Shown here piece by piece: positions 12,707-38,957 of a stretch of DNA of 64,000 nucleotides; position 1 is the first letter of the stretch; each line of letters begins with the position of its first letter. The stretch is from a virus. A program made the translations under genes and the position numbers. The stretch is taken from the IMG/VR virus record IMGVR_UViG_3300023174_005338, positions 62,001-126,000 of that record. The stretch is one strand, 5' to 3'. Under the pieces are notes generated by a model. The model made no database searches. It had not been told where the DNA came from and was given only the letters and a program-made list of their open reading frames with translations.

Positions 12707-13097
12707 TCAGCGGTTGCACTGCCACGTGGAACTGGAACCCGTGGGCAATCCCGAAGTGTCGGTGATCATTGCCGGTGTGTATGGAGGCGGAAAACTTTTC
12801 AAGTCCGTTGAGTTCAATATCAACGTTGACTTATTGAAGCCTTTCACTATTGAAATTGAACTTCGAAATAAAACATACTCCACTGATCATGAAACTGCTG
12901 TGATCGTCAAACAGTTACAAATTGACGATATTGATCTTGTGCCCAGATTTGACTATCTAGCTGTGTACAACAACGATCACAACAACACCAACCCTACCAG
13001 CTACCTGGGTTTTAATGGTAAGTGGACACTAACTATTGATAGGCCTTTTTATCAATGGTTGCATCAGACCACAGCACAAGGCTGGCTTATAAGTTAG
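12675..13097 (+). CDS. Conserved beta-rich protein, unknown function
   Basis: A 140-residue frame overlapping the radical SAM gene by 32 bp; a TTG at 12711 is a possible alternative start. It contains CHVELEPVGNPEV, ELRNKTYSTDHETAVI and SYLGFNGKWTLTIDRPFY, a beta-sandwich-like pattern that I recall beside radical SAM or fibre genes in marine phages. Its stop codon lies within the GTTAGTGCGCACTAAC palindrome. Confidence 0.6.
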   Translation: MKTYSDLQAIDQRLHCHVELEPVGNPEVSVIIAGVYGGGKLFKSVEFNINVDLLKPFTIEIELRNKTYSTDHETAVIVKQLQIDDIDLVPRFDYLAVYNNDHNNTNPTSYLGFNGKWTLTIDRPFYQWLHQTTAQGWLIS

Positions 13098-13108
13098 TGC
13101 GCACTAAC
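13093..13108. promoter_or_regulatory. Palindromic operator, copy 1
   Basis: GTTAGTGCGCACTAAC is a perfect 16-bp palindrome lying 18 bp upstream of a -35 box. Related sites are at 28165 and 38942. Confidence 0.6.
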
Positions 13109-28164: not shown

Positions 28165-28184
28165 ATGTTAGTGAACACTAACAT
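28165..28184. promoter_or_regulatory. Palindromic operator, copy 2
   Basis: ATGTTAGTGAACACTAACAT is a perfect 20-bp palindrome (core 28167-28182) ending 8 bp before the -35 core start. Confidence 0.65.
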
Positions 28185-28190
28185 CAGTAG

Positions 28191-28219
28191 TTGACAAAGT
28201 CCAGCATTTGTAGTATAAT
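28191..28219 (+). promoter_or_regulatory. Near-consensus promoter of the DGQHR cassette
   Basis: TTGACA at 28191-28196, 17-bp spacer, TATAAT at 28214-28219. It matches both consensus hexamers, so basal activity should be high unless the adjacent palindrome is bound. Confidence 0.85.
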
Positions 28220-28230
28220 TACTAATAGCT

Positions 28231-28288
28231 AGCCAATTTAAACTTGAAGAAGTTGGCGGCTGTTTATTAACCGACAGTCTCAGGACTG
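28231..28288 (+). promoter_or_regulatory. Structured 5' leader
   Basis: The leader before the DGQHR gene can form GCCAA...TTGGC, CTGT...ACAG and CAGTC-TCAG-GACTG (28275-28288), the last just upstream of AAAGGA. It may control translation. Confidence 0.35.
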
Positions 28289-28305
28289 CTATGAAAGGAT
28301 GTAAA

Positions 28306-29367
28306 ATGGCACAGCGCCTTACCCGCAAACTTACCGATGTGGCCGCGGAAGTTGAAAAGCAAATCAAGGCCCACTACAACATCACGCAACGAGAACTTGA
28401 TTCTTTCCGTGAACGAGCTCAAGCAAAACATAAATTGGGTTTAGATTTTCCTGAATCAAAAATGGTTCCTATTGATGATCTTTGGATTGACTACGAAGTC
28501 CAACGAGATGTCTTGCACAAACACATCATCAGTATCATGAAAAATTGGGATCCAAGAATTTGTAGTCCTGTGTCGGCTTGCCGTTTGCAAGATCGCGATC
28601 GCAACGATACATATGATGGTCAGCACAGAACCATCTCGGCTACTATTTTAGGCTATAAAGAAATTCCCGGAGCAGTGGTTCATACCGATGATCCAAACTT
28701 TGCTAGCCTGGCCTTTGAAATGCTCAATGACACTGGTGTAAAACGTTTAGGTCCAGGAGACTTGCATCGTAACGCCTTGGTTCGTTACAAAAATGGCAGC
28801 CGAGAAAGCCGGAATGTGTGTGCTCGCACTTTGCAAGATCAATTTGATAATTTACAAATCGACCTGCAAGACAAAGGTTCCCGGTCCAGCGATAATTTAC
28901 GTGGCGATCATGATTACTTCTTTAGTCATTTCAAGTACGCATACAAAGGCATTGAGATTGACGAATCCGGCAAGGTATTGTATGCCATACTGGAGGCTAT
29001 AAAAACAGTGTTTCCTTTGCAAGAAGAAATCGATCAAGGTGTGTTTATTGGGTTGTGCGAATTGCAACGCCTAAACAGCACAAACTCACGCAACAAATTG
29101 CCCGACGGTTGGATGAAAATTTTATTGGAATCTGCCAAGACTACTTTTAAAAGTAGTCACTTGATACATGCCAAGGCAAAAATCCAATGGGAACACAGTC
29201 ATCCAGGTGCAGGCTGGGTGGCACCCACTGCCATGAGCAACTTCCTGCGTGAGATGCACTTACGCAACGGTGGTCAGTTAAATCTCCCCTATCACGGCGA
29301 AGGTGCCAAGGTTGGTATTGTGGATGGTAATGTTGCTCCAGGACTGTTTCCACAAGGAGGCGAATAA
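28306..29367 (+). CDS. ParB/DGQHR-domain protein
   Basis: 353 residues from the ATG at 28306, which is preceded by AAAGGATGTAAA. VPIDDLWIDYEVQRDVLHKH is the ParB/sulfiredoxin-like N-terminal pattern, and DGQHR at 104-108 is the box shared by ParB-type nucleases and DndB-like DGQHR proteins. LNDTGVKRLGPGDLHRNALV follows. ParB-fold proteins bind nucleotides and may act on DNA. It is the first gene of the accessory cassette with a nuclease-like gene and an ABC/GNAT fusion. Codon use is more AT-rich than neighbouring operons. A DNA-modification or restriction regulator role is inferred. Confidence 0.7.
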   Translation: MAQRLTRKLTDVAAEVEKQIKAHYNITQRELDSFRERAQAKHKLGLDFPESKMVPIDDLWIDYEVQRDVLHKHIISIMKNWDPRICSPVSACRLQDRDRNDTYDGQHRTISATILGYKEIPGAVVHTDDPNFASLAFEMLNDTGVKRLGPGDLHRNALVRYKNGSRESRNVCARTLQDQFDNLQIDLQDKGSRSSDNLRGDHDYFFSHFKYAYKGIEIDESGKVLYAILEAIKTVFPLQEEIDQGVFIGLCELQRLNSTNSRNKLPDGWMKILLESAKTTFKSSHLIHAKAKIQWEHSHPGAGWVAPTAMSNFLREMHLRNGGQLNLPYHGEGAKVGIVDGNVAPGLFPQGGE

Positions 29368-29368
29368 T

Positions 29369-29848
29369 ATGAAATGCGTGTTAAAAGAAACTGTATTTGG
29401 AGAACGGCTAAATGAACAAATGTCACTGAGTGATGCAATTGATTTGCTAAGTGACCTAGACCTCATTAACATTGGTGAGTTGGGTGAAAAAGCAGTAAGC
29501 ATACAAACTGGAATCAGTCAATGTGCCAAAAATACTCCTAACATTGATCTGCTCAACGGTATTCAAATCAAAACCGCTCAAACAAATCCTGATAATCCAA
29601 CAAACGGATTTCTCAAAGCCTGGTTCACTATCAAGAATTGCACGGCTCCAATTGCTGTTATTGTTACAGAACGTGTTACAAAGAAACAATACTTTTTTTA
29701 TATACCGTACTCAGGATACAAACATATGAATGCCAATGCAGTCAGTATTCCATTTGACGAGCGTGGTAGACCATACACTAAAAATGAATGGTGGTATTAT
29801 AACGTACCAACCTGGGCAGATCTTTGCAAAAAGGCATCGACATGTTAA
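29369..29848 (+). CDS. Putative PD-(D/E)XK nuclease
   Basis: 159 residues from an ATG with AAGGAGG upstream; the two bases after the previous stop separate it. NIGELGEKAVSIQ supplies an early Glu, NIDLLNGIQIKTAQTN gives the D-x(n)-QIK core typical of PD-(D/E)XK folds, and hydrophobic strands follow (FTIKNCTAPIAVIVTE). It is AT-rich compared with its flanks. The substrate is unknown; the context suggests DNA. Fold assignment rests on motif spacing only. Confidence 0.5.
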   Translation: MKCVLKETVFGERLNEQMSLSDAIDLLSDLDLINIGELGEKAVSIQTGISQCAKNTPNIDLLNGIQIKTAQTNPDNPTNGFLKAWFTIKNCTAPIAVIVTERVTKKQYFFYIPYSGYKHMNANAVSIPFDERGRPYTKNEWWYYNVPTWADLCKKASTC

Positions 29849-30399
29849 AAGAAAGTCTTGATCAATTTACGGCACCCATCTACGGCAAAACTCAGCGCAC
29901 CCCCGATACCTATCGCACAGTGGCCGCTTACTGTAAGAAGAATCTGGATCGCTTGGTCAACAACTACAATGAAGTAGTAAATGATCAACAGTTATTGCGT
30001 GAAATCCGTAATGATATTGACACATACTTGCGTCGCTATCATGAATACTGCATCCAGCAACGTGATGGCATGCTGGCTCACTATCATGAAATAGGCGCCG
30101 ACACGGATTGTGATTTTGAACATCTGATACCAGCGGCTCGTATTCGTGATTTACTTCTTGCCGGCGCCATTACAGTAGAACAAGCTCTTAATGCTCCTAC
30201 AGTGAGATTGAGTCGGGCCAAACACCGGGCACTCAAAGATGCAGGTTGGTCCGCCAAAACTCCCAACATGTGGTTGCCGTTTGAACGCTATACCAATGTG
30301 TTTGGAGCTACTTACCAAACCCACGACGGAACGGCTGTTGATCCGTTGACATGGACCTTGGAAAAGCATTACAATTACTTTCAACACCTTGTGTTATGA
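29842..30399 (+). CDS. Cassette protein with FEHLIP motif
   Basis: 185 residues from the ATG at 29842, overlapping the previous gene by 7 bp. A helical N-terminal half (CKKNLDRLVNNYNEVVND) precedes DCDFEHLIPAARIRDLL and TVRLSRAKHRALKDAGW, then MWLPFERY. The D..FEH.IP block resembles the His-containing start of some HNH nucleases, but no full HNH core is visible. It lies between the nuclease-like and ABC/GNAT genes and overlaps the latter by 4 bp. Confidence 0.5.
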   Translation: MLKESLDQFTAPIYGKTQRTPDTYRTVAAYCKKNLDRLVNNYNEVVNDQQLLREIRNDIDTYLRRYHEYCIQQRDGMLAHYHEIGADTDCDFEHLIPAARIRDLLLAGAITVEQALNAPTVRLSRAKHRALKDAGWSAKTPNMWLPFERYTNVFGATYQTHDGTAVDPLTWTLEKHYNYFQHLVL

Positions 30400-31457
30400 A
30401 CAATTACTTAGAAACCATCCGAACCAAGTACGACATCAAGGACTATGTTGAAACGCCTGTGACCATACCTGATTTGCCTACTGAAGGCATTGTGCTGATA
30501 GTAGGAACTTCGGGTTCAGGCAAGAGCACGATCCTGCGCAGACTTGGTCACACCCAAGCCGTGACGTCGAGTCCTTGCAGTACTGTGATAGAAAACTTTT
30601 CTACCCCTGAACGCGGCGAGGAATTACTTCTAGCCGCAGGCTTGCGTAGCATACCCACTTGGTTCCGGCCACCTAATACATTGAGCAATGGTGAATATCA
30701 CAGATTTGAAATGGCCATGGCCATAGATCAAGGTATCCGTTGCATTGACGAATTCACTAGCGTAGTTGACCGCGACACAGCCAAGAGCTTGGCCTACAGT
30801 GTGAGGAAGTATTACAATCAGAATCCTGGTGTGCTATATATTGCCAGTTGCCACAGAGACATAACGGAGTGGTTGGATCCTGACTGGGTCTACGACACAG
30901 ACCTGCAGAAACTTGATAATCGGAGGTCACTTCTTCGACTGGGGACAAGACCAAAACTCACACTCACCATCCGAAGCACAACTCCGGACTATTGGCGATA
31001 TTTCAGTAAATATCATTATCTAGATACCCGGATGAGCCGTAGCGTTCATTGCTATGTGCTGTTGCTAGGTGACAAGCCCATTGGTTTCCATGCTGCAATA
31101 CATTCAACCAATAGAGATATTCACAGTTACTGGCGTGGACACAGGACTGTGATACTGCCTGAGTTTCAAGGCATGGGTATAGGCACTGCGTTCAGTGATG
31201 CCATAGCACAGATCTATGTGGATCGCGGCCTAAGATACTTTAGCAAGACTGCTCATCCAAGTTTTGGTGAACACAGAGAAAAGAGTCCCTTATGGCGGCC
31301 AACCAGTACCAACCGTAAGAGTCGAAAAGGCAGTTATCTGCTCAAGGATGGCTCAATCAGAGCCATGCCCGGCTACGGTGGTAATGCAGAAATCGCTCGA
31401 AGAGATGCAGATCGTGTGTGTTACAGCCACGAATACATTGGCGTCAAGAAGAACTGA
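30396..31457 (+). CDS. ABC ATPase-GNAT fusion protein
   Basis: 353 residues with two domains. Residues about 25-180 form an ABC-type ATPase: Walker A GTSGSGKST at 37-45, signature LSNGE at 96-100, Walker B GIRCIDEF with E119, and switch H153 (ASCHRD). Residues about 190-350 are a GNAT fold with HRTVILPEFQGMGIG at 249-263 and an AHPSFGEHREKSPLW segment. There are no membrane helices, so it is not a transporter. Mu Mom, which modifies adenine, is also a GNAT; a DNA- or nucleotide-modifying role with the DGQHR protein is inferred. It is convergent with, and overlaps, the minus-strand gene. Confidence 0.8.
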   Translation: MNNYLETIRTKYDIKDYVETPVTIPDLPTEGIVLIVGTSGSGKSTILRRLGHTQAVTSSPCSTVIENFSTPERGEELLLAAGLRSIPTWFRPPNTLSNGEYHRFEMAMAIDQGIRCIDEFTSVVDRDTAKSLAYSVRKYYNQNPGVLYIASCHRDITEWLDPDWVYDTDLQKLDNRRSLLRLGTRPKLTLTIRSTTPDYWRYFSKYHYLDTRMSRSVHCYVLLLGDKPIGFHAAIHSTNRDIHSYWRGHRTVILPEFQGMGIGTAFSDAIAQIYVDRGLRYFSKTAHPSFGEHREKSPLWRPTSTNRKSRKGSYLLKDGSIRAMPGYGGNAEIARRDADRVCYSHEYIGVKKN

Positions 31458-31752
31458 GTTCGCATTTTAGAGTTTGATAGTCTTGTATGGTACTGACCGT
31501 TGGTGTGGTCCGAGCATCATAATGGCTTTCCATGGTCTGCCATTCTTCTTCGTCCACAGCTGAAGTCACAATCAATTCATATTCGTGACCATCGGCACTA
31601 TACAATTTTATAGTTTCAAATCCAAATCCGCCTGCGGCAGCGTTTTTGGCCGCTTCAGCAAGACCCTTCAAGGCCTGACGATCTGCTACTATGTAACCGG
31701 TGCCTCGAGGACCGGTGGGTGGATACATGTGTAATCTTCCTGTGGGTTTCAT
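31444..31752 (-). CDS. Small hypothetical protein
   Basis: 102 residues, ATGA-coupled to the end of the polymerase-like gene. GRLHMYPPTGPRGTGYIVAD and GFETIKLYSADGHEYELIVT suggest a small alpha/beta domain. No family recognised; possibly an accessory to the polymerase-like protein. Confidence 0.55.
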   Translation of the reverse strand: MKPTGRLHMYPPTGPRGTGYIVADRQALKGLAEAAKNAAAGGFGFETIKLYSADGHEYELIVTSAVDEEEWQTMESHYDARTTPTVSTIQDYQTLKCELSSS

Positions 31753-33422
31753 TGATAGTGTTCTATGTCCTTTAAGTCTAGCTTCTTGTGTTTATACACT
31801 GTAACATATTCTGAATTATTTTTGTACCCCAGTTTGCCCTGACCCCAGAGTATGGGTTGATCATGAAAGCTAGCCGCATGTGGTAGGATTACATCAAGAT
31901 AACGACCATTGCCAGTACCTAGTGTAACAAAGGTTATGTATTTCTTTCGGTCGGATTTGAATACTCTATAGTTGGCTACTAGGCCGCAGAACTCCACAGT
32001 TCCTGGGCCACGTCGTTCTTGACAGGCCGGAATGAATCTTTGACTTGACCAGCGACCGTTGGCACGCAGTTCGGCCACTTCACCACCTTCGGTCACAGCA
32101 GGCACAGCACCAGCCAACTTGGCTTCTTGCCAGTAAACCCAGCGGGCGTAGCTACCTTGGCAGTGCTTGAGAGCCGCACGCCAGAACTGTTCAGGATTGT
32201 GTGCTTTCTGATAGGCCAAGGCCCAGATCAATCGGCCCAGGTTGATGGCATGTGCCCTACACAGTCCGAAATGGCTGAGCTCACGTAGTGCTAAAAATAT
32301 TTCTTCTTTTTTGGGATGGTCTCCTACTAGCACCATGAACTCAAAGATCTTTTCTTCATCCTTTTTGGCAAAGGCTCGCCGCCACATGTCCGCAGTGTAT
32401 TGATCACAACCCAAGATTTCTGAAATCAGCTCTATGGCATCGTCCTCAAACACTATGGTATCTTGCAGTTGATCTGTCGACCAGTCTTGGAACGCTGACG
32501 CACGACGCCGACCCATGGTAGCCACTGGTCTTATAAGTGCTGTGGCCAGCACACAATCACTTCTAGTTCTTGGACGAATGGCCTTGCACAATCGTTTCAT
32601 GGCTGGGCTTTCGGCCTGTGTAACACCCAGCACATTGCCTGAGCTCAACAACTCTGCTGTGGCTTCATCTTCTTCGGGATAGTCCAACAAGTCACGCTGA
32701 TCTATCTCCCACAGTTGACTGAGTCCGCGATTGGCCAAGATATCGATCTTGAAATGTTCAAGATCTTCTATTTCATACTTGTCCAAAAGTATTTGATTGG
32801 TGCCGTTGATTAAACTTTTTGGTACGGCACGATCAAAGATCAGGATACCGCCGCAGTGTTTTGAAATACAACGTTTTTTGCCCATGAGTTTTTGTGTGAG
32901 CCGTTCAGCATCCTCCACATAGTCGGGCACTACTTCTTCAAACCGGAAGTTTCTTTTCAGTGTGCCCTTGGCACCCAGGCGCTTGGCTGCTTCTCTGCGT
33001 GCTGATTTTTCTTTGTACATCACATAGTTGCTTACCCTGGCACTCTGTCCAGGCCAGCGCCGGAATATCCTGTTCATGACTTCTTCCTGTTGCCAGTGCG
33101 GGAAGTCTAGATCGATGTCGGGCAGGTCATCACGTTTGGGATTCATAAAGCGTGACAAGGGTATGCGTTCCTGTATAGGATCCACATCCGAAATGCCCAT
33201 GAGCCAGCATAGCAAACTACTGCCAGCTGATCCTCGAGTGATGTGTGGAATGTCTCGTGTGAGATCCAGGATTTCTCTCACACGCAAAAAATGTCGTGCG
33301 AAATTCAAGTTGGCTATGATTTCTAGTTCTTCTTCAAGCCGTGTTGCGTAAGCTGGATCGTTGGGTAGTTGTCGTGTAAATTTTGAGATTAGTATTTCTA
33401 GTTCGTCATATCTGCTTTTCAT
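31749..33422 (-). CDS. C-family DNA polymerase core lacking PHP domain
   Basis: 557 residues resembling the palm, thumb and fingers of bacterial DnaE. RGSAGSSLLCW (63-73) and PLSRFMNPKRDDLPDIDLDF (88-107) match, with active-site D102 and D104 in PDIDLDF and the third Asp D227 in HFKIDIL. A typical DnaE is over 1100 residues with an N-terminal PHP domain, absent here; the C-terminal OB-like region is short. It might be a standalone translesion or repair polymerase, or a replication modulator. Catalytic Asp residues look intact. Confidence 0.75.
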   Translation of the reverse strand: MKSRYDELEILISKFTRQLPNDPAYATRLEEELEIIANLNFARHFLRVREILDLTRDIPHITRGSAGSSLLCWLMGISDVDPIQERIPLSRFMNPKRDDLPDIDLDFPHWQQEEVMNRIFRRWPGQSARVSNYVMYKEKSARREAAKRLGAKGTLKRNFRFEEVVPDYVEDAERLTQKLMGKKRCISKHCGGILIFDRAVPKSLINGTNQILLDKYEIEDLEHFKIDILANRGLSQLWEIDQRDLLDYPEEDEATAELLSSGNVLGVTQAESPAMKRLCKAIRPRTRSDCVLATALIRPVATMGRRRASAFQDWSTDQLQDTIVFEDDAIELISEILGCDQYTADMWRRAFAKKDEEKIFEFMVLVGDHPKKEEIFLALRELSHFGLCRAHAINLGRLIWALAYQKAHNPEQFWRAALKHCQGSYARWVYWQEAKLAGAVPAVTEGGEVAELRANGRWSSQRFIPACQERRGPGTVEFCGLVANYRVFKSDRKKYITFVTLGTGNGRYLDVILPHAASFHDQPILWGQGKLGYKNNSEYVTVYKHKKLDLKDIEHYQ

Positions 33423-38941: not shown

Positions 38942-38957
38942 GTTAGCGGGCACTAAC
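38942..38957. promoter_or_regulatory. Palindromic operator, copy 3
   Basis: GTTAGCGGGCACTAAC, the palindrome with a changed centre, ends 8 bp before the -35 box, just as copy 2 does. Confidence 0.55.

What the first reader, a model, noticed from the sequence alone, without database searches (positions are those of the whole stretch)
28165..31457. ParB/DGQHR + PD-(D/E)XK + FEHLIP + ABC-GNAT cassette: possible new DNA-modification or defence system
Four coupled genes sit behind a consensus promoter with a perfect palindromic operator. Seen: DGQHR box in a ParB-like protein, QIK nuclease-like core, and an ABC ATPase joined to a GNAT with intact ATPase motifs and no membrane segment. Known: DGQHR occurs in DndB and ParB-type nuclease families, and phage Mu Mom is a GNAT that modifies adenine. 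Inferred: the set writes or guards a DNA modification, or attacks competing DNA. AT-rich codons in the first genes mark it as accessory.
Basis: partly seen in the sequence, partly recalled or inferred. Interest (0 to 1): 0.82.

Follow-up and report, generated by a model that had tools for sequence, protein, structure and literature searches.

The report
Phage ParB cassette with swappable nucleases
A giant bacteriophage carries a four-gene cassette (a ParB-like NTPase, a cutting-enzyme gene of swappable type, a second HNH-like protein and an ATPase-acyltransferase fusion) that most likely marks the phage's own DNA and cuts other DNA; in related phages the cutting-enzyme gene is exactly replaced by unrelated nucleases while its neighbours stay the same.

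Summary
The four genes are real, tightly coupled, and preceded by a perfect sigma-70 promoter and a 9-bp palindrome. The window lies in a 337-kb virus record. P1 is a ParB/sulfiredoxin-fold DGQHR protein; P3 carries an HNH-like E-H-P-N-(H/D) signature; P4 is an intact ABC-GNAT fusion, a family already predicted to acyl-modify DNA. P2 looks like PD-(D/E)XK by motif only.

New here: P1 and P3 travel together (16 of 16 jumbo records), whereas the gene between them is a swappable nuclease slot. All 56 slot genes examined look like HNH, GIY-YIG or PD-(D/E)XK nucleases. The type changes at least 28 times on the P1 tree of 56 tips. In the window's closest relative an HNH gene replaces P2 exactly between the P1 stop and P3 start. 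P4 is optional. In a shared genomic hot spot, P1/P3/P4 relatives and DNA methyltransferases combine with nucleases. In isolated phages ABC-GNAT is often directly preceded by a ParB_N gene.

Best reading: a phage-borne restriction-modification-like cassette: P4 marks phage DNA, and P1-guided nucleases cut unmarked or competing DNA. P1/P3 resemble GmrSD but fail its Pfam models. Mark, substrate and activity are untested. New variant of a known kind; interest about 0.62.

The parts
28165..28184 (.). palindrome ATGTTAGTG-AA-CACTAACAT, member of a phage-wide GTTAGTG-N2-CACTAAC regulon
   Evidence: 9-nt arms, 100% complementary; six sites with at most 1 mismatch in the own genome; recurs upstream of other genes in relatives at helically phased distances from the promoter
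28191..28219 (+). sigma-70 promoter TTGACA-N17-TATAAT
   Evidence: 12/12 consensus; conserved upstream of P1 in 65 of 70 relatives
28306..29367 (+). P1: ParB/sulfiredoxin-fold DGQHR protein (alternative ATG at 28291)
   Evidence: AlphaFold2 model pLDDT 87 matches KorB, Noc, ParB, PadC (Foldseek prob 1.00, E 2e-3 to 4e-2); QR 71-72, D(G/A)QHR 109-113 and FxxxN 142-146 conserved (numbering from ATG 28291)
29369..29848 (+). P2: PD-(D/E)XK-like nuclease occupying the swappable slot
   Evidence: E40 and D60 invariant, K68 in 9 of 10 relatives; no Pfam or PDB match; all other occupants of the slot are nuclease-like
29842..30399 (+). P3: 'FEHLIP' protein, probable HNH/His-Me finger fold, always paired with P1
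   Evidence: E93, H94, P97, N117 invariant and H/D at 128 in 39 sequences; AlphaFold2 pLDDT 93.7 with beta-beta-alpha order; no significant fold match; weak HNH_4 hits in 4 of 39 members
30396..31457 (+). P4: ABC ATPase-GNAT fusion, predicted DNA acyltransferase
   Evidence: phrog_11143 E 2.3e-81; Acetyltransf_1 over cut-off; Walker A, LSNGE, DE, H-loop and QGxGxG invariant or nearly so

Best explanation
A phage-borne, restriction-modification-like cassette with an interchangeable nuclease. Shown: gene content, motifs, P1-P3 linkage, exact replacement of the slot nuclease, optional P4, conserved strong promoter. Inferred: (1) P4 uses ATP and an acyl-CoA or related donor to place an acyl group on DNA bases, marking the phage genome. 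(2) P1, a ParB/Srx NTPase of the DGQHR type, loads on DNA and licenses or targets the nucleases, as GmrS is thought to do for GmrD. (3) P2 (PD-(D/E)XK-like in this phage; HNH or GIY-YIG in others) and P3 (HNH-like) cut DNA that lacks the mark or carries a foreign one, that is host DNA or co-infecting phages. (4) Exchange of the nuclease gene changes the target specificity or evades resistance while the P1-P3 platform stays.
For: Slot genes: 56 of 56 nuclease-like by motif, at least 20 of them supported by Pfam (HNH_3 18, HNH 10, MvaI_BcnI over cut-off 1, MUG113 1, T5orf172 1, partly the same proteins). P1:P3 is 16:16 in jumbo records. Hot-spot cross-tab anchored on an independent gene: nuclease in 15 of 22 loci with a P1/ParB/P3/P4 gene against 1 of 18 without, Fisher p 6e-5. 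Reverse search by the GIY-YIG family: ParB adjacent in 21 of 26, often with a second nuclease. P4 also occurs with a nuclease alone (HNH+P4, PD+P4) or with MTase+REase. ABC-GNAT directly follows a ParB_N gene in six isolated phages by Pfam and is next to formyltransferase or aspartate decarboxylase genes in others, which fits acyl-group chemistry. Iyer et al. predicted DNA acyl modification for ABC-GNAT (PMC7824862).
Against: 13 of 16 P1-P3 jumbo records show no P4, so the proposed mark must come from elsewhere there, or none is needed. One mark would have to block nucleases of several folds and probably different sites. P2 and P3 have no database or fold match. Eighteen P1-P3 loci have no gene between them, although several of these have a nuclease next door. 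No biochemical data.
Confidence: 0.5

Rival explanations
1. A GmrSD-like, modification-dependent (type IV) nuclease system: P1 is the GmrS-like NTPase, P3 and the slot gene are nucleases, and together they destroy modified DNA of competing phages; P4 is an independent protective gene that merely shares the operon.
For: P1 has all three DGQHR-domain motifs that PMC4619093 lists for GmrS (QR, DGQHR, FxxxN); P3 has E-H...N...H/D like the GmrD E/D-H-N-N; P4 is absent from 13 of 16 P1-P3 records; BrxU (GmrSD) appears, weakly, in the fold search of P1 (E 0.35).
Against: No member of either alignment matches PF03235 or PF07510 even at E 0.1, and neither model matches the own genome although they ring in 8 and 6 control genomes. 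It does not explain why a third nuclease of changing fold is kept.
Confidence: 0.22
2. The slot genes are free-standing homing endonucleases that repeatedly invade the P1-P3 junction; P1, P3 and P4 are ordinary phage genes with no joint function.
For: Intergenic position, exact replacement, HNH, GIY-YIG and PD-(D/E)XK folds, absence in 18 loci; one occupant family has a NUMOD3 motif; phage homing endonucleases can serve other functions of the phage (PMC13096335, abstract).
Against: The nuclease also sits before P1 or after P3 (L098, L086, L116, L146, L023); the same families pair with P4 or with divergent ParB genes at other junctions; most slot proteins are short, restriction-enzyme-sized, and one is MvaI/BcnI over cut-off.
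Confidence: 0.17
3. A DNA-modification or anti-restriction module in which the ParB-like and FEHLIP proteins with ABC-GNAT install a hypermodification and the small nucleases only nick DNA to assist this.
For: ParB_N + ABC-GNAT pairs in isolated phages without a nuclease gene recognised beside them; ABC-GNAT prediction in PMC7824862.
Against: P1-P3-nuclease usually occurs without P4 or with methyltransferases instead.
Confidence: 0.08

Closest known systems
ABC ATPase-GNAT predicted DNA acyl-modification system (Iyer et al. 2013; jumbo phage example Tenacibaculum phage pT24 in PMC7824862); phrog_11143
   Same: P4 is a full-length member by profile and 35% identical to the pT24 protein; a ParB-type gene directly upstream is shared with several isolated phages
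   Different: here the ParB is a large DGQHR type with a helical C-terminal part, and nucleases of changing fold share the operon
GmrSD / BrxU type IV restriction enzymes (DUF262 ParB/Srx NTPase + DUF1524 HNH)
   Same: ParB/Srx fold with QR, DGQHR, FxxxN; partner with E-H-N-H/D motif order; neighbouring genes
   Different: no PF03235 or PF07510 match; a third nuclease gene of changing fold between the two; carried by phages
Mom-REase pairs of jumbo phages (GNAT momylation enzyme fused to a REase, PMC7824862)
   Same: acyltransferase of the GNAT superfamily next to a PD-(D/E)XK-like nuclease in a jumbo phage
   Different: the GNAT is fused to an ABC ATPase, not to the nuclease, and ParB-like P1 and P3 are added
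Type II restriction-modification systems
   Same: the nuclease slot holds small restriction-enzyme-like proteins, one of the MvaI/BcnI family; methyltransferases take part in the same hot spot
   Different: in P1-X-P3 no methyltransferase is needed and one conserved platform is combined with several nuclease folds
Free-standing phage homing endonucleases (Seg, Mob)
   Same: HNH and GIY-YIG ORFs between conserved genes, exact presence/absence exchange
   Different: found with ParB/P3/P4/MTase companions at several junctions rather than at one cleavage site

Membership tests
ABC-GNAT (phrog_11143; predicted DNA acyltransferase) | full-length profile match with ABC ATPase plus GNAT in one protein | tested here: met
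   E 2.3e-81 over residues 4-351; motifs conserved
ABC-GNAT (phrog_11143; predicted DNA acyltransferase) | acylated base in DNA | not testable with these tools
   needs LC-MS of nucleosides
GmrSD type IV restriction enzyme | GmrS domain DUF262 (PF03235) | tested here: not met
   no member of A2 matches at E 0.1; no match in own genome, controls ring
GmrSD type IV restriction enzyme | ParB/Srx fold with QR, DGQ(Q/H)R and FxxxN motifs | tested here: met
GmrSD type IV restriction enzyme | GmrD domain DUF1524 (PF07510) | tested here: not met
   no member of A1 matches; no match in own genome, controls ring
GmrSD type IV restriction enzyme | cleavage of hmC/glc-hmC DNA | not testable with these tools
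   needs assay
HNH / His-Me finger (P3) | (D/E)H in first strand, N, and H/N/D at start of the helix | tested here: inconclusive
   motif and secondary-structure order fit, HNH_4 hits only 0.025 in 4 of 39, no fold or profile-profile match
PD-(D/E)XK nuclease (P2) | conserved E, D and (D/E/Q)xK in the core | tested here: inconclusive
   E40, D60, K68 conserved, no Pfam, PDB or profile match, fold not predicted
Type II R-M system | cognate DNA methyltransferase next to the REase | tested here: not met
   none among the four genes; no PF01555 match in own genome; other methyltransferase families were not searched; relatives of P4 do have MTase+REase partners
ParB partition system | ParA gene and centromere sites beside ParB | tested here: inconclusive
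   P3 is the only constant neighbour of P1 and no ParA-like gene was recognised; the palindrome is scattered before promoters of unrelated genes; neighbours were not all searched by profile
Known anti-phage defence systems (PADLOC) | profile match for P1-P3 | tested here: not met
   no family for P1, P2, P3; only ATPase-level hits for P4

The most novel reading that the evidence does not exclude
A new class of phage-carried DNA-cutting system in which a ParB-type NTPase clamp plus the FEHLIP protein form a universal platform that arms whichever small nuclease is inserted between their genes (HNH, GIY-YIG or PD-(D/E)XK), so that specificity is renewed by whole-gene exchange; ABC-GNAT acylation is an optional self-mark.
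Probability: 0.27. Interest if true: 0.82.

Novelty: new variant of a known kind. Interest (0 to 1): 0.62.

Why it matters
If true, giant phages carry modular restriction-like weapons with a plug-in nuclease and a chemically new self-mark. That would explain how they could clear host or rival DNA, give a natural set of nucleases that work on one platform, and make the predicted but, as far as I know, untested ABC-GNAT DNA modification directly testable, also in cultured phages with ParB_N + ABC-GNAT pairs.

Tried and rejected
Partition system: not favoured, no ParA recognised and the palindrome is a promoter-linked regulon site. ABC transporter for P4: rejected, it is fused to GNAT and no permease was seen beside it. 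Membership in GmrSD: rejected at profile level. Known defence system: no PADLOC match for P1-P3. P3 homologues in bacterial genomes: one 3.5-kb contig only. P3 fold search in PDB and BFVD: nothing significant. Direct profile comparison of P3 with HNH proteins and of P2 with the MvaI/BcnI-like slot protein: no support. Reverse search with the HNHb family mainly found other phage HNH genes, so for that family the link holds only for its close members; the same holds for distant PDa members. The slot-nuclease adjacency table is biased because most loci were fetched by P1, P3 or P4; I rely on the independently anchored hot-spot set and the reverse searches instead. The Sinorhizobium phage Phosso ParB-like gene has no recognisable nuclease neighbour. 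The 2013 source paper for ABC-GNAT is not held, so it is cited through PMC7824862.
Full report
What is there. The window is positions 62001-126000 of a 337,119-base virus record. At 28165-31457 it holds four same-strand genes separated by +1, -7 and -4 nt: P1 (353 aa from ATG 28306, which fits most relatives; 358 aa from 28291), P2 (159 aa), P3 (185 aa), P4 (353 aa). A perfect sigma-70 promoter lies at 28191-28219. The promoter is more than chance: 65 of 70 P1 relatives have at least 10 of 12 consensus positions upstream, against about a tenth of random 180-nt segments.

The proteins. P4 is a full-length member of phrog_11143 (E 2.3e-81), with an intact ABC ATPase and a GNAT domain. P1 has no Pfam family. 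Its AlphaFold2 model (pLDDT 87) matches KorB, Noc, ParB and PadC with Foldseek probability 1.00 and E of 2e-3 to 4e-2. It conserves the QR pair, D(G/A)QHR and FxxxN, which PMC4619093 names as the motifs of the DGQHR domain and of GmrS. P2 has an invariant E40, an invariant D60 and K68 in nine of ten relatives, the layout of a PD-(D/E)XK core, but no database match. P3 gives a confident model (pLDDT 93.7) without a fold match. E93, H94, P97 and N117 are invariant and residue 128 is H or D in 39 sequences, in beta-beta-alpha order, as in HNH proteins and like the GmrD motif; I put the chance that P3 is a His-Me finger protein at about two in three.

The swappable slot. In IMG/VR, 79 loci were found with P4 and 80 with P1. 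Nearly every P1 locus has P3 downstream, but the gene between them differs. Re-reading the slot gave 57 sequences: 56 nuclease-like by motif (HNH of three kinds, GIY-YIG of three kinds, PD-(D/E)XK of two kinds, the window's P2 included) plus one fragment of P1 itself; 18 loci have no gene there. Pfam finds HNH_3 in 18 and HNH in 10 slot proteins (partly the same), one MvaI_BcnI (E 2e-8, over cut-off), one MUG113 and one T5orf172; the rest are called by motif, for example GIYa with the Y-x-Y, K-x-G, R, E, N pattern of GIY-YIG enzymes. When the slot is empty, a nuclease often sits before P1 or after P3. On the P1 tree the nuclease type changes at least 28 times over 56 tips; shuffled labels need 33 on average, so exchange is nearly free. 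The window and its closest relative (L002: P1 97%, P3 83%, P4 88% identical) differ exactly here: DNA identity stops at 29371 and resumes at 29844, and P2 is replaced by an HNH gene. One pair with 96.5% identical P1 and 97% identical P3 carries HNH versus GIY-YIG.

The companions. In 16 jumbo-phage records with P1, all have P3 and three have P4. P4 instead may follow a nuclease alone, a nuclease with a DNA methyltransferase, or a divergent ParB with P3. Taking a third gene (c3) as anchor, the hot spot behind it holds a nuclease in 15 of 22 distinct loci with a P1, ParB, P3 or P4 gene and in 1 of 18 without (Fisher p 6e-5). Searching by nuclease alone, 21 of 26 GIYa loci have a ParB gene beside them, some only 25% identical to P1, and there ParB often goes with two nucleases, in one case a canonical HNH plus GIY-YIG. 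The wider HNHb and PDa families also occur elsewhere. In isolated phages without such nucleases, ABC-GNAT is directly preceded by a ParB_N protein (Jace, Javan141, Vinitor-27, Pmp13, EastWest, LE4 by Pfam) and in some is followed by a formyltransferase (three phages) or aspartate decarboxylase (Jace). This fits acyl-group chemistry with a ParB helper.

How it most likely works. The anatomy is that of a restriction-modification-like cassette: a modifier that is optional and exchangeable with methyltransferases, an NTPase of the ParB/Srx type, and one or two nucleases of which one is swapped freely. I propose that P4 acyl-marks the phage genome and that P1 licenses P2 and P3 to cut unmarked or foreign DNA. 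The first step rests on the published prediction for ABC-GNAT (PMC7824862, citing Iyer 2013), the second on analogy with GmrSD. Neither is shown. The main difficulty is that most P1-P3 phages lack P4, so the platform may work without this mark. That keeps a GmrSD-like rival (0.22) and a homing-endonuclease rival (0.17) alive.

Comparison. P4 is a member of the ABC-GNAT family. P1/P3 look like GmrS/GmrD by motif but fail both Pfam models in all members and in the own genome, so I do not file them as GmrSD. PADLOC has nothing for P1-P3. What I did not find described is the conserved ParB-FEHLIP pair around an exchangeable nuclease slot; the paper searches were limited to open-licence full texts.

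Regulation. The palindrome GTTAGTG-N2-CACTAAC before P1 occurs six times in the own genome with at most one mismatch, and in relatives before P1, P3, the divergent ParB and several unrelated genes. Where a promoter of at least 10/12 lies downstream, its distance to the -35 hexamer falls at 22-27, 33-36 or 44-45 nt (32 of 33 sites; Rayleigh R 0.77 at 10.5 nt), while a reversed control motif had no promoter behind any of 18 matches. Sites are related by descent, so the statistics are optimistic. The phasing points to a regulator acting from one face of the helix, perhaps an activator.

Noticed in passing
window 28167-28182, 13018-13033, 13093-13108, 38942-38957; own genome C1 40702, 173428: Phage-wide palindrome GTTAGTG-N2-CACTAAC sits upstream of near-consensus sigma-70 promoters at three helically phased distances (about 24, 34, 44 nt), before accessory genes; looks like a regulon with an unknown regulator.
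   Followed up: partly
window 1-64000: Six exact TTGACA-N16-18-TATAAT promoters against 0.05 expected, all on the + strand, so this phage uses host-type consensus promoters heavily.
   Followed up: no
L502, L501, L504, L497: In isolated phages ABC-GNAT genes are directly followed by a formyltransferase (Komp_PAO1_1, Porphyromonas phage007a, Yago84) or aspartate decarboxylase (Jace), hinting at the donor chemistry of the predicted DNA modification.
   Followed up: partly
L080:8001-10141: Two ABC-GNAT genes in tandem (39% and 37% identical to P4), perhaps two marks or specificities.
   Followed up: no
L227-L301 behind gene family c3; L298, L255: The c7-c15-c3 hot spot of related jumbo phages also holds methyltransferase-like genes, a large helicase-like gene and other unknown genes; a defence or counter-defence island worth mining.
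   Followed up: partly
L021, L025, L057 upstream of P4: A large methyltransferase-like family (up to 1160 aa, Eco57I-type by Pfam in L057) is present as two to four consecutive ORFs in several relatives.
   Followed up: no
window 31749-33422: A 557-aa DnaE-like DNA polymerase III alpha piece directly downstream on the opposite strand, conserved in the nearest relative; named by eye only.
   Followed up: no
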